Below, piece after piece: positions 11,487 through 15,360 of a DNA stretch of 34,522 nt; within the stretch, counting starts at the first letter, position 1; the number at the start of each line of letters is the position of its first letter. Position numbers and translations under genes: made by a program. Source of the DNA: an uncultured Clostridia bacterium (GTDB lineage Bacteria > Bacillota > Clostridia > Christensenellales > Borkfalkiaceae); NCBI GenBank assembly GCA_944372515.1, contig CALVZM010000005.1, forward strand, positions 1 to 34,522, given 5' to 3'. The notes beneath the pieces are model-generated. The model searched no databases. It saw nothing but the letters and a program-made list of their open reading frames with translations, and was not told where the DNA came from.

Positions 11487-11705
11487 TCAATAGTCCCGCA
11501 GTCCGAGAATGTAATCGGCGGAAACGTCCAGCGCCTTGCACAGCGCGGCAAAAGTATCCAGCCGCGGCAGTTTTTTTGTGGTCGCGTATTGGGTGATCAT
11601 TTCGGGCGAAACGCCCACTTTCCGCGCGATCTCCGTCGTCGTCAGTCCGCTGTTTTTGATCTCTTCCCGCAACCGCCGTTTGATGACTTGTCCCGTTTCG
11701 TTCAT
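11487..11705 (-). CDS. XRE-family transcriptional regulator
   Basis: This 72-residue minus-strand protein is a single Cro/C1-type helix-turn-helix domain. The HTH is LTTTEIARKVGVSPEMITQY (about residues 21-40), followed by the typical LPRLDTFAALCKALDVSADYILG. It has no extra ligand or peptidase domain, so its signal, if any, is unclear. GAGAGGGA precedes the ATG at 11705. Two matching operators lie just upstream, one on its own promoter side and one in a divergent promoter, so it probably represses itself and the divergent transcript. The open frame upstream of the chosen start runs through these operators and is not likely to be translated. Confidence 0.88.
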   Translation of the reverse strand: MNETGQVIKRRLREEIKNSGLTTTEIARKVGVSPEMITQYATTKKLPRLDTFAALCKALDVSADYILGLRDY

Positions 11706-11733: not shown

Positions 11734-11775
11734 TAACTAATGGTTAGAAAATACTTGACAAATAACCATTGGTTA
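11734..11775. promoter_or_regulatory. Paired operators of the XRE regulator
   Basis: Two 13-bp sites match at 11 positions: TAACTAATGGTTA (11734-11746) and TAACCATTGGTTA (11763-11775). Both have inverted halves (TAAC...GTTA), and their centres are 29 bp apart. The first overlaps an AT-rich -10-like sequence (TATATT on the minus strand) for the regulator gene. The second fills the spacer of the divergent plus-strand promoter. They are inferred binding sites of the adjacent XRE protein. Confidence 0.75.
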
Positions 11776-11782
11776 GTATACA
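11755..11782 (+). promoter_or_regulatory. Divergent promoter overlapping the second operator
   Basis: TTGACA (11755-11760) is followed by TATACA (11777-11782, 16-bp spacer) or TACAAT two bases further (18 bp). The spacer is almost entirely the second operator, so the XRE protein should block this promoter. Transcription would begin near 11789. Confidence 0.75.
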
Positions 11783-11821
11783 ATAACAAAAGAGAAAGGA
11801 TTCGTTGCGGAGGGACGTTTT

Positions 11822-11884
11822 TTGGAAGAAGAGATTTTTTCGGGGTCGGCGCGGCGGAAAAAAGATAAAAGAATATGGGTTTGA
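11822..11884 (+). CDS. Candidate 20-residue peptide under XRE control
   Basis: A TTG at 11822 opens a 20-codon frame ending in TGA at 11882-11884. GGAGGG (11809-11814) sits 7 bases upstream, the best ribosome binding site in this transcript. The peptide would be LEEEIFSGSARRKKDKRIWV, with an acidic start, a basic middle and an Ile-Trp-Val end; it has no membrane helix. The frame ends 7 bases before a 15-bp terminator, which is what a tiny complete gene would look like. Against it: the start is TTG, it is very short, and conservation cannot be tested here. The RNA itself may be the product. Confidence 0.35.
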   Translation: MEEEIFSGSARRKKDKRIWV

Positions 11885-11891
11885 GTGTAAG

Positions 11892-11930
11892 GGAGCGCCC
11901 CGCGGCTGTTTGCCGCGGGGCGCTCCTTTT
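11892..11930 (+). terminator. Strong terminator of the divergent short transcript
   Basis: A perfect 15-bp stem (11892-11906 with 11912-11926) with loop TGTTT is followed by TTTT. It ends the transcript that starts near 11789, giving an RNA of about 140 bases. Confidence 0.88.
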
Positions 11931-12064: not shown

Positions 12065-12092
12065 TTGACTTTCTACGGGGGGGGGGTATAAT
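12065..12092 (+). promoter_or_regulatory. Esterase lipoprotein promoter with a G10 tract, likely phase-variable
   Basis: TTGACT (12065-12070), a 16-bp spacer and TATAAT (12087-12092). The last ten bases of the spacer (12077-12086) are an unbroken run of G that touches the -10. Slippage by one base would give 15- or 17-bp spacing and change promoter strength. The leader downstream contains a perfect hairpin, GCATTTCG (12112-12119) with CGAAATGC (12124-12131). Confidence 0.75.
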
Positions 12093-12172: not shown

Positions 12173-14569
12173 ATGAAAAGCAAAAAGATCCAAAGCGTCC
12201 TGCTCGGGCTCGTCTTCGCGCTTTCCGCTCTGTTTATGACGGTGGCGGCGGGTTGCGATTTTTCAGACGGCGATTCTTCGGGCAGCGCTTCCGCGGGCGG
12301 TGATTCTTCGGGCAGTGATTCTTCGGGCGGCGGACAGACGGTCGCCGTGTCCGAGGTTTCGTTGGACGAAACGGCGCTTGCATTGGAGATCGGGGAAAGT
12401 TACACGCTCACCGTAACGGTCAAACCCGCCGACGCGACGGACAGGGACGTGGAATGGTCCACGGACGATGCCGCCGTCGCCACGGTGTCGGGCGGCAGGG
12501 TAACGGCAGTCGGCGAGGGGCAAGCCGTCATCACCGCGGAAGCGGGCGGCAAGAGCGCAACGTGCACCGTTACCGTCAGCCAGCCCGCCGTCGACGTGGT
12601 GGACGTCATCCTCTTCACGGTGCAGTCCAACATGGTCGGGCGGGAAACTTCGCCGTATTCCGTCAGCATTCCCGCGGACTATGCCTATGAATATAAATAC
12701 AACACGGACAGCCTGACGGCGCTGCGCAATCCCGTCGGCGAAAAACTGAAAGCGGCGGAACCGTCCAGCGGTTCGAGCATCGTGCCGCAGTTCTGCGCCG
12801 ATTACGTGGCGAAAACGGGCAGAAAGGTCGTCGCCGTACACGTGGCGCGCGGCGGGCAGGAGATCGCCAAGTTCGCGCCCGGACAGACGCTGTATAACGA
12901 CATCGTAACCAAGTTCACCGCCTGCCTCGACTATCTCGAAGAAGCGGGCACGTTCGAGATCGGCCGCACGTTCTACGTCATGTATCAGGGCGAGTCCGAC
13001 TCTCGGAACTCCAATACGATGGCAACCACGTCCAAAGAACAATACATGAAAACCTACATGCAGTTCCACAACGGGCTGCAAGCGGCGTTCGATTTTGAGT
13101 TCGGCGCCATCATCTATACGGGCAGAAATACCTATGAAAGCCTTGCAGGTGTCAAGACGGTCAACGCGGCGCAGAACCAACTTGCCTTGGACAACGAGGA
13201 CATCATCGTCTGCGACAAGGCGCCCGCCAATTACTACCTCTTCCACACCGATTACATGCTTTCGGACAACGTGCACCTGAACGCGGCGGGTCTGCGTAAG
13301 GTCGGCTCCGATTCCTGCCGCGCCGTGCTCGATTACATGGGGCTCGGCGATCCCGAAAAGGCGGGCGTGGATCCCGCGACCTATCTTGCCGAACCGATCT
13401 ATGAAGTGGCGCCTGCGAGCGGGGCTTATGAATGGAACTTCGACGAGGGGGACATGTCCGAGGCGAGCGGAAGATTCACGGCGACCAAAGTGGGGGAAGG
13501 CGAAGCCGTGTTCAAGGACGGCAAGTACACGCACGCGGCGGACGGTTCCAGCGTCTATTGGGAACTCTCCGCGCCCCTGCTCCTCTCCAAAGACCAGAAT
13601 TGGACCATGGAGTGGAAGGGCAAGAGCGGCAGTCCCATGAACGGGCACGCCGCGGTGCTCCTCACCAACGGCGCCAACGTCTTTGTTACTTTCCAGGAAA
13701 CCAACGGCATCTATCTGCGCAACAACGACGCAAGGGCGCAGTTCAAGGACGTTGTGGGCGAGATCTATACCGAACACGTCTGGAAACTTTCCTATGACAG
13801 CGCGGCAGGGCAGGTCGAACTCTTCATGGACGGCGTATCCAAGGGCAAACTTGCGTGGAACTCCGACCTCACTTTCACCCATCTTTTCGGCGCGACTAGC
13901 ACATTAGGCGGCGCTTCCGACAACTCCGACAACAACTATTCCTTCGTCGGCGAACTCGACTATCTGAAAATTGCCGCCGAGGACGAGGCGGAACCGCCCG
14001 CTCCCGCGGCAGATGGCTATGAATGGAACTTTGACGAGGGGGACATGTCCGAGGCGAACGGGCTTCTCACGGCGACCAAAGTGGGGGACGGCAGCGCCGT
14101 ATTCACGGACGGGAAATACACGCACGCGGCGGACGGCTCCAGCGTCTATTGGGAACTCTCCGCGCCCGTCAAACTCTCCAAAGACCGGAATTGGTCGATC
14201 GAATGGAAGGGCAAGAGCGGCAGTCCCATGAACGGGCACGCCGCGGTGCTCCTCACCAACGGCGCCAACGTCTTTGTTACCTTCCAGGAAACCAACGGCA
14301 TCTATCTGCGCAACAACGACGCAAGGGCGCAGTTCAAGGACGTCGTGGGCGAGATCTATACCGAGCATGTCTGGAAACTTTCCTATGACAGCGCGTCGCA
14401 TCAGGTCGAACTCTTCATGGACGGCGTGTCCAAGGGCAAACTTGCGTGGAATGCCGACCTCACTTTCACCCATCTCTTTGGCGCGACGAGCACATTAGGC
14501 GGCGCTCCCGACAACAACTATTCCTTCGTCGGCGAACTCGACTATCTGAAAATTGCCTTGGGCGCATAA
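12173..14569 (+). CDS. Surface lipoprotein: Ig-like domain, SGNH/sialate O-acetylesterase-type domain and two lectin-like modules
   Basis: This 798-residue protein has a lipoprotein signal peptide with Cys28 in VAAGC and a Ser/Gly/Asp linker (31-54). A BIG2-type Ig-like domain follows (about 57-137). Residues 142-390 are an SGNH-type carbohydrate esterase domain like sialate O-acetylesterase or CE6: nucleophile Ser152 in VQSNMVGR, the YQGESD block (271-276), and Asp365/His368 in SDNVHLN. The C-terminus holds two nearly identical ~180-residue modules (419-601 and 616-795) with a LamG/concanavalin-like pattern (YEWNFDEGD start, VELFMDGVSKGKL, YSFVGELDYLKIA end), likely binding glycans. AGGGAGG precedes ATG 12173. 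Deacetylation of host or dietary glycans at the cell surface is inferred. Confidence 0.85.
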   Translation: MKSKKIQSVLLGLVFALSALFMTVAAGCDFSDGDSSGSASAGGDSSGSDSSGGGQTVAVSEVSLDETALALEIGESYTLTVTVKPADATDRDVEWSTDDAAVATVSGGRVTAVGEGQAVITAEAGGKSATCTVTVSQPAVDVVDVILFTVQSNMVGRETSPYSVSIPADYAYEYKYNTDSLTALRNPVGEKLKAAEPSSGSSIVPQFCADYVAKTGRKVVAVHVARGGQEIAKFAPGQTLYNDIVTKFTACLDYLEEAGTFEIGRTFYVMYQGESDSRNSNTMATTSKEQYMKTYMQFHNGLQAAFDFEFGAIIYTGRNTYESLAGVKTVNAAQNQLALDNEDIIVCDKAPANYYLFHTDYMLSDNVHLNAAGLRKVGSDSCRAVLDYMGLGDPEKAGVDPATYLAEPIYEVAPASGAYEWNFDEGDMSEASGRFTATKVGEGEAVFKDGKYTHAADGSSVYWELSAPLLLSKDQNWTMEWKGKSGSPMNGHAAVLLTNGANVFVTFQETNGIYLRNNDARAQFKDVVGEIYTEHVWKLSYDSAAGQVELFMDGVSKGKLAWNSDLTFTHLFGATSTLGGASDNSDNNYSFVGELDYLKIAAEDEAEPPAPAADGYEWNFDEGDMSEANGLLTATKVGDGSAVFTDGKYTHAADGSSVYWELSAPVKLSKDRNWSIEWKGKSGSPMNGHAAVLLTNGANVFVTFQETNGIYLRNNDARAQFKDVVGEIYTEHVWKLSYDSASHQVELFMDGVSKGKLAWNADLTFTHLFGATSTLGGAPDNNYSFVGELDYLKIALGA
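13427..14557 (+). repeat. Tandem duplication of a 180-codon module
   Basis: Unit 1 is 13427-13975 (183 codons) and unit 2 is 14018-14557 (180 codons), separated by a 14-codon Glu/Pro/Ala linker. By my count they differ at about 16 residues plus a three-residue indel. Long stretches, such as 13609-13803 against 14200-14394, differ at only a few silent sites. This points to recent duplication or gene conversion. Confidence 0.92.
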
Positions 14570-14684: not shown

Positions 14685-14922
14685 TGCGGCGGGAGAAAGA
14701 AACGCATATAATTTTTATGCGCTTTAACATTTGACTTTTTACGGGGGAGGGGTATAATAAAATCGTCCATATAATCGGCAGTTCGTTGCCGAAATATATA
14801 CGGATGAAAAATCAAACGATATAAGGGAGGATTTACACATGAAAAGCAAAAAGATCCAAAGCGTTCTGCTCGGGATCGTCTTCGCGCTCTCCGCTCTGTT
14901 CATGACGGTGGCGGCGGGCTGC
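14685..14922 (+). repeat. Second copy of the promoter, leader and signal-peptide cassette
   Basis: This segment matches 12021-12256 closely: the same -35 and -10 boxes, the ATCGTCCATATAATCGGCA leader stretch, the ribosome binding site and the codons for the signal peptide up to the lipobox Cys. Similarity stops right after the Cys codon, where the two proteins become unrelated. Confidence 0.88.
14731..14758 (+). promoter_or_regulatory. Promoter of the second lipoprotein gene, G-tract interrupted
   Basis: TTGACT (14731-14736), a 16-bp spacer and TATAAT (14753-14758) repeat the esterase promoter almost exactly, but the G-run is GGGGGAGGGG (14743-14752), broken by one A. That should make it stable against slippage while keeping the same spacing. 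Confidence 0.8.
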
Positions 14923-15360
14923 AAAATCGCCGTGCAGGATGAAAACACTTCCGGTGCGGGCAACAGCGGCGCGGCAGGCGATTTCGTCGGAGAAAAATTG
15001 TCCGCAGATGAATGGAACGATGCGCTCGTTCTGTCGCTCGGCAATTTTTCCATGACGAATGAAGTGATAAAATCGGACGATTCCCGAGCGATCGGAGCAA
15101 AGTGCGACTTCCGATTCGACGGAAAGAATGCGTTGCCGGCGATCGACGCAGACGAAAATACCGTGGAGAGCGATGCGGAAGGCTATTTCTTTACTTATAC
15201 CGACGGGGAATGCCGGGGATATGCCTGTGAGAACGGCGTCCGGACAGAAGTGAGTTTGGACGGGATCGGCATGACGGGCGTATCCCGCTTTCTCGTTTTT
15301 GCCGCGTTTCGGAAGAAAAAGGGGCGAAAGAAAGATAAAATTATGAAAGCGGAAGCATAA
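14839..15360 (+). CDS. Short lipoprotein of unknown function, possibly C-terminally degraded
   Basis: The 173-residue product starts with the same signal peptide as the esterase lipoprotein (one change in the first 28 residues) and has its lipidated Cys28 in VAAGC. The mature part begins with a Gly/Ser/Asn linker, then a SADEWNDALVLSLGNFSMT segment. This resembles the start of small beta-rich lipoproteins I have seen in Clostridia, but I cannot name a family. A YFFTYTDGECRGYACENG stretch follows. The end, FRKKKGRKKDKIMKAEA, is very basic and unlike a folded domain end, which suggests truncation by an old frameshift or deletion. No terminator is obvious before the rpsB promoter. Confidence 0.7.
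   Translation: MKSKKIQSVLLGIVFALSALFMTVAAGCKIAVQDENTSGAGNSGAAGDFVGEKLSADEWNDALVLSLGNFSMTNEVIKSDDSRAIGAKCDFRFDGKNALPAIDADENTVESDAEGYFFTYTDGECRGYACENGVRTEVSLDGIGMTGVSRFLVFAAFRKKKGRKKDKIMKAEA

What the first reader, a model, noticed from the sequence alone, without database searches (positions are those of the whole stretch)
11734..11930. XRE repressor with paired operators and a divergent ~140-nt transcript carrying a 20-codon frame
Two 13-bp sites that differ at two positions cover the repressor's own promoter side and the spacer of a divergent promoter. The divergent RNA runs only from about 11789 to a 15-bp terminator at 11930. It holds a TTG-started 20-codon frame with GGAGGG at 7 bases, ending just before the terminator. 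A dedicated repressor for such a short transcript suggests a regulatory RNA, a signalling peptide or a small toxin-like peptide. No known family matches.
Basis: partly seen in the sequence, partly recalled or inferred. Interest (0 to 1): 0.58.

Follow-up and report, generated by a model that had tools for sequence, protein, structure and literature searches.

The report
Repressor cassette with exchangeable cargo slot
A tiny repressor gene that, across related gut bacteria, sits in front of a different gene in almost every lineage has here nothing but a short, probably untranslated RNA in that slot, so the small peptide first suspected is probably not real while the repressor-controlled RNA probably is.

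Summary
The anatomy is as described: a 72-aa XRE repressor, two 13-bp operators 29 bp apart, a divergent promoter with operator 2 in its spacer, and a transcript of about 140 nt ending at an 18-bp hairpin. The operators are real: a promoter-plus-operator pattern hit 20 of 301 family genomes (reversed control 0), and 20 of 20 hits lie beside a divergent XRE homologue. In the window's genome the operator consensus occurs only at this pair, so the repressor looks dedicated.

The 20-codon peptide is not supported: in both orthologous loci the frame lacks a stop before the hairpin or is shifted. The RNA keeps an 11-nt block and a covarying hairpin, but no other significant fold.

In 93 related loci the XRE and operators stay while the divergent gene changes (72 proteins, about 39 clusters, 31 lipoprotein-like); at one site three unrelated cargos share the same flanks. 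Eleven of 93 hold only a short RNA plus hairpin. In sister species G004 a lipoprotein gene, homologue of window 14839, follows the leader. I read the window as a cassette uncoupled from its cargo. A functional sRNA is the main rival: a sibling XRE group drives a covarying ~145-nt RNA without a Rfam match.

The parts
11490..11705 (-). XRE (HTH_3) repressor, 72 aa, no sensor domain
   Evidence: HTH_3 E 7.8e-10; single-copy orthologue in 91 of 398 family genomes; dN/dS 0.06-0.11 among the three genus members
11734..11746 (.). operator 1, between the repressor gene and the divergent promoter
   Evidence: operator pair in 83 of 93 XRE loci, spacing 28-31 bp; only pair in the genome
11763..11775 (.). 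operator 2, inside the spacer of the divergent promoter
   Evidence: same promoter arrangement in 79 of 93 loci
11755..11784 (+). divergent sigma-70-type promoter TTGACA-18-TACAAT
   Evidence: same promoter-operator pattern in 20 of 301 genomes, control 0
11790..11930 (+). predicted short transcript / leader RNA
   Evidence: start site inferred; conserved blocks with G003 and G004; no Rfam family
11822..11884 (+). 20-codon TTG frame, judged not a gene
   Evidence: frame not kept in G003 or G004
11870..11880 (+). 11-nt block AGAATATGGGT invariant in the three genus members
11889..11929 (+). 18-bp hairpin, probable terminator with a short T tract
   Evidence: stem kept with paired changes in G003 and G004
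12065..12092 (+). separate promoter of the first lipoprotein gene; spacer holds a run of ten G
   Evidence: second copy at 14731-14758, 86% identical DNA
12173..14569 (+). lipoprotein with Big_2 and SASA domains; lies between the cassette and its probable former cargo
   Evidence: first 28 aa 96% identical to the second lipoprotein
14839..15360 (+). second lipoprotein, homologue of the gene that follows the leader in G004
   Evidence: 61% identity over 147 aa to the G004 gene

Best explanation
This is one member of a family of chromosomal repressor cassettes: a 72-aa XRE protein binds two 13-bp operators about 29 bp apart and shuts a strong divergent promoter, probably limiting its own transcription too. 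The promoter normally drives one exchangeable cargo gene. In this genus the cargo was most likely the lipoprotein now at 14839, preceded by a leader of about 200 nt with a hairpin. In the window that gene has been uncoupled: the hairpin is a long GC-rich stem with some T behind it, both lipoprotein genes carry their own promoter, and another lipoprotein gene lies in between. What remains under the repressor is itself and a short untranslated leader RNA. Shown: operators, promoter layout, cargo diversity, synteny, loss of the peptide frame. Inferred: repression, autoregulation, termination, and that 14839 was the former cargo.
For: Operator specificity: 20 of 20 pattern hits beside a divergent XRE; 83 of 93 loci with the pair; the operator consensus occurs only at the cassette in 10 of 12 XRE-carrying genomes examined, including all 3 of this genus. 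Cargo exchange: 72 cargo proteins plus 2 window lipoproteins fall in 39 blastp clusters; at one site in genus g9 the flanks are 74-92% identical DNA while three unrelated cargos occur. G004: leader and hairpin are followed by a homologue of window 14839, 61% over 147 aa, with no recognisable promoter of its own (by eye). Decay elsewhere: in G003 operator 1 and the -35 hexamer are missing and no lipoprotein follows; in g9 L123 has no cargo while L100 has a broken copy and L106 an intact one.
Against: The XRE stays under purifying selection where no cargo follows (dN/dS 0.03-0.10 among cargo-less cassettes); a pure relic would be expected to decay. The leader keeps an 11-nt invariant block and the hairpin stem keeps paired changes, also in G004, where the T run is missing. 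The G004 lipoprotein start is out of frame at a run of A, so that gene may not be expressed as drawn. Only three genomes hold this orthologue.
Confidence: 0.55

Rival explanations
1. The short RNA is a functional regulatory RNA and the XRE is its dedicated switch, as in the sibling XRE group.
For: A sibling XRE group (46-58% identical, different operator) drives a covarying ~145-nt RNA in 16 of 27 loci; 11 of 24 pairs have changes on both sides and 0 of 500 shuffles reach this. Cargo-less cassettes recur in several genera, 11 of 93 loci by reading, with the XRE under purifying selection. Leader blocks are conserved in G003 and G004.
Against: The window RNA does not belong to the sibling RNA: best score 10.7 bits, E 0.069. 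Outside the hairpin it folds no better than shuffles, z -1.19; G003 z 0.25; G004 z -1.25. The G003 promoter is partly deleted. In G004 a lipoprotein gene follows.
Confidence: 0.28
2. The segment is a conditional leader: the hairpin is an attenuator, and read-through from the XRE promoter reaches the lipoprotein genes under some conditions.
For: Short T tract behind the stem, not listed by the terminator scan; stem conserved with paired changes even in G004, which lacks the T run; G004 has the lipoprotein gene directly downstream.
Against: No competing antiterminator fold was seen; no Rfam leader reaches its gathering score; both window lipoproteins have their own promoter-like site.
Confidence: 0.12
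3. The 20-codon frame is a translated signalling or toxin-like peptide.
For: GGAGGG seven bases before TTG; the frame ends just before the hairpin. The last residues RIWV recur in some frame in G003 and G004.
Against: No stop before the hairpin in G003; one-base shift in G004, where the frame that holds RIWV has a stop upstream and no start after it. The conserved block is invariant also at third codon positions, which points to RNA rather than peptide.
Confidence: 0.04

Closest known systems
Phage and ICE repressors of the C2/ImmR/RstR type (PDB 2r1j P22 C2; 7t8i ICEBs1 Xre regulator; NCBIfam phage_RstR)
   Same: HTH domain of the same type (sequence matches); divergent promoter with operators around it (recalled for those repressors)
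   Different: only 72 aa; no phage or ICE genes noticed nearby; no viral-contig homologue found; below the phage_RstR cut-off (38.6 against 80 bits); controls one cargo slot
Chromosomal XRE regulators beside a single divergent target, in general (recalled)
   Same: XRE next to one divergent target, operators at the shared intergenic region
   Different: same regulator and operators are kept while the target gene changes between and even within lineages
Sibling XRE cassettes with the ATCG-type operator in the same family (found here)
   Same: XRE 46-58% identical, operator in the promoter spacer, often no protein cargo
   Different: their RNA is a defined structured family with a C-rich loop; the window RNA is not a member

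Membership tests
XRE / HTH_3 repressor | HTH_3 domain above the curated cut-off | tested here: met
   39.1 bits against 23
phage_RstR (NCBIfam NF041951) | curated score cut-off | tested here: not met
   38.6 against 80 bits
TAACC-operator XRE cassette (defined here) | two TAACN5GTTA sites 28-31 bp apart beside a divergent XRE | tested here: met
   window 11734 and 11763, 29 bp
TAACC-operator XRE cassette (defined here) | last operator inside the spacer of the divergent promoter | tested here: met
   window; 79 of 93 loci
TAACC-operator XRE cassette (defined here) | protein cargo directly downstream | tested here: not met
   no conserved open frame before the hairpin; 11 of 93 loci share this state
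Sibling XRE-driven sRNA (model R1) | covariance-model score comparable to members | tested here: not met
   10.7 bits against 100 and 134 for two of the model's own source loci
Known Rfam RNA families | gathering score | tested here: not met
   0 matches in the window; best sub-threshold hits fall on the hairpin
Small peptide gene | conserved start-to-stop frame in orthologues | tested here: not met
   0 of 2 orthologues
Repression by the XRE in vivo | binding and derepression | not testable with these tools
   needs DNA-binding and reporter tests

The most novel reading that the evidence does not exclude
A lineage-wide set of mutually orthogonal mini-repressors, each reading its own operator, forms plug-in expression slots; some slots lost their protein and became dedicated switches for small regulatory RNAs. 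The window would be one such switch, with a ~140-nt RNA as its only product besides the repressor.
Probability: 0.25. Interest if true: 0.68.

Novelty: new variant of a known kind. Interest (0 to 1): 0.52.

Why it matters
A fixed repressor, operator pair and promoter that recur with unrelated cargo, at one site even with the flanks unchanged, would be a natural expression slot and a way for gut bacteria to swap surface proteins under constant control. The cargo-less versions and the sibling group's structured RNA make it testable whether such slots turn into small-RNA switches.

Tried and rejected
Peptide reading: rejected on frame comparison in the two orthologues. A 23-bp perfect match to the leader elsewhere in the genome (G000 C71) lies in GC-rich sequence that by eye looks coding; treated as chance. 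A DNA search with the leader alone found only hairpin-like fragments in G003 and G004, not the orthologous leaders; those were found through the XRE. Rfam: no family at gathering score for the window or for 15 other loci scanned, 10 sibling and 5 of the TAACC group. Membership of the window RNA in the sibling RNA family: not met. In the family-wide search with model R1, 71 of 201 genomes had a match at E <= 0.001, but only 8 matches exceed 50 bits; all 8 lie beside an XRE. I treat the weaker ones as mostly terminators by chance, without checking each. Phage or plasmid origin: no relative in viral contigs by protein or by pattern; 9 plasmid records matched, all below 60% identity (the 8 shown 33-41%). 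Defence function of cargo: 1 of 10 cargo proteins had a PADLOC match (PDC-S64, E 8e-8, 62 residues), 9 none. Before clustering I set aside 21 of 93 loci as empty, truncated, broken or unclear; the 11 I call empty are L001, L153, L142, L054, L079, L083, L118, L143, L120, L043, L123, judged by reading, not by a blind rule. L143 has a possible 71-aa frame through the hairpin. Extra operator matches exist in G153 and G084, and one each in G001 and G002, which lack the XRE orthologue. Literature: seven searches listed nothing on such cassettes; I saw search listings only and read no paper.

Full report
What is there. A 72-aa XRE protein (11705 to 11490, minus) stands opposite a strong promoter (TTGACA 11755, TACAAT to 11784). 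Two 13-bp sites, at 11734 and 11763, differ at two positions; the second fills the promoter spacer. The predicted RNA ends at an 18-bp hairpin, 11889-11929. The T tract is short and the simple terminator scan did not list the hairpin, so termination is inferred.

The operators are real. I searched 301 genomes of the family for the promoter-operator pattern without using the protein. Twenty genomes had one hit each; the reversed control had none. All 20 hits lie beside a divergent XRE homologue, 68-100% identical. A protein search found the orthologue in 91 of 398 family genomes, one match each at E <= 1e-22. With two from other families of the order, 93 loci were examined: 83 have at least two sites, 6 have one, 4 none; the spacing is 28, 29, 30 or 31 bp in 1, 49, 26 and 7 loci, and in 79 of 93 the last site lies in the promoter spacer. 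In the window's genome the 14-bp consensus occurs only at this pair. In 12 XRE-carrying genomes examined, 10 have it only at the cassette; G153 and G084 have it at one more place, and G001 and G002, without the orthologue, have one match each. The repressor therefore looks dedicated.

The peptide is not supported. Orthologous loci exist in 2 of the 4 other genomes of the genus. In G003 the TTG frame has no stop before the hairpin; in G004 the distance to the conserved block differs by one base. The block AGAATATGGGT is invariant in all three at DNA level, while synonymous divergence in the XRE is 0.8-1.1, which favours constraint on the RNA. The hairpin keeps paired changes. The rest of the RNA folds no better than shuffles (window z -1.19); the G003 and G004 folds also give nothing (z 0.25 and -1.25; the G004 stretch began upstream of the start and cut the hairpin).

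What the slot usually holds. Reading the divergent side of the 93 loci, I set 21 aside as empty, truncated, broken or unclear and took 72 cargo proteins. With the two window lipoproteins they fall in 39 clusters at E 1e-4; a lipobox pattern matches 31 of the 72. Pfam names for ten of them include BspA-type LRR (2), SHOCT (1) and weak zinc ribbon or DUF4352 matches. Six loci of genus g9 (L068, L070, L073, L097, L102, L141) share left flanks (74-90% identity to L141 over 687-954 bp) and right flanks (82-92% over 249-803 bp), yet carry three cargo types without detectable similarity. Cargo is thus replaced at a fixed site.

The window's case. In G004 the leader and hairpin are followed by a lipoprotein gene homologous to window 14839 (61% over 147 aa); it is weakly similar to the cargo of L063 (22% over 244 aa, E 0.001). 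I see no promoter before the G004 gene, and its start is out of frame at a run of A. In G003 operator 1 and the -35 hexamer are gone and no lipoprotein follows. In the window both lipoproteins have their own promoter-like site, in two copies of one stretch at 86% identity. I therefore read the window's RNA as the leader of a former lipoprotein operon, now uncoupled.

Why a functional RNA stays open. Eleven of 93 loci have only a short RNA with a hairpin (my reading), among them three of genus g3 that share a GGTTCTTAT stretch and three of g10 that share an AACAAATGAG core. Between such cargo-less loci the XRE shows dN/dS of 0.03-0.10. A sibling XRE group, operator TTGACAATCGYAYATTANGYGAT, was found in 26 of 398 genomes, 27 sites, control 0, with a divergent XRE at 27 of 27. 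By my reading, 8 of these carry a protein, 3 a short RNA of another kind, and 16 a conserved structured RNA with a C-rich loop. In the alignment of those 16, 94.5% of cells pair and 11 of 24 pairs have changes on both sides; 0 of 500 shuffles reach either value. A covariance model then found three further loci that the operator pattern had missed, each beside an XRE. Rfam has no match for the ten scanned. The window's RNA is not of that family.

Taxonomy and setting. One related locus (L186, the same XRE as L063) is named Candidatus Borkfalkia excrementavium, and G003 corresponds to an uncultured Clostridia bacterium; the family is probably Borkfalkia's, by inference. No viral-contig relative was found. 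Literature searches listed nothing on such cassettes; I read no paper.

Noticed in passing
L218-L232 and L242 (sibling XRE loci), e.g. L227:1530-1680: A structured ~145-nt RNA with three covarying helices and a CUUUCCCC-type C-rich loop, opposite an XRE at every aligned locus; no Rfam match in those scanned. The loop resembles anti-Shine-Dalgarno seeds of known sRNAs (recalled)..
   Followed up: partly
window 12065-12092 and 14731-14758; L003:1534-1556: Promoter spacers made largely of G: ten G in a row in the window, an interrupted copy before the second lipoprotein, and nine G between TTGACA and TATGAT in another contig. Slippage could switch such promoters on and off..
   Followed up: no
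window 12173-12256 and 14839-14922: The two lipoproteins share an almost identical signal peptide (96% of 28 aa) and upstream DNA but no similarity further on, as if a promoter-plus-signal module had been copied..
   Followed up: partly
L141, L068, L070, L073, L097, L102: Same flanks and XRE, three unrelated cargo genes: exchange of cargo at a fixed site..
   Followed up: yes
L083, L118, L143 (genus g10): Cargo-less cassettes sharing an AACAAATGAG core, with a longer shared block TTCTCCTGAAACAAATGAGAGTAAATAC in L083 and L143, before a strong hairpin..
   Followed up: no
L099, L136 (genus g7): The XRE cassette lies directly upstream of a lepA-like elongation factor gene; in L099 a short cysteine-containing frame lies between..
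   Followed up: no
G000:C42:14171-14368 (L038): A second XRE (48%) in the same genome with its own repeat-type operators and a small cysteine-containing protein opposite: another sibling cassette..
   Followed up: no
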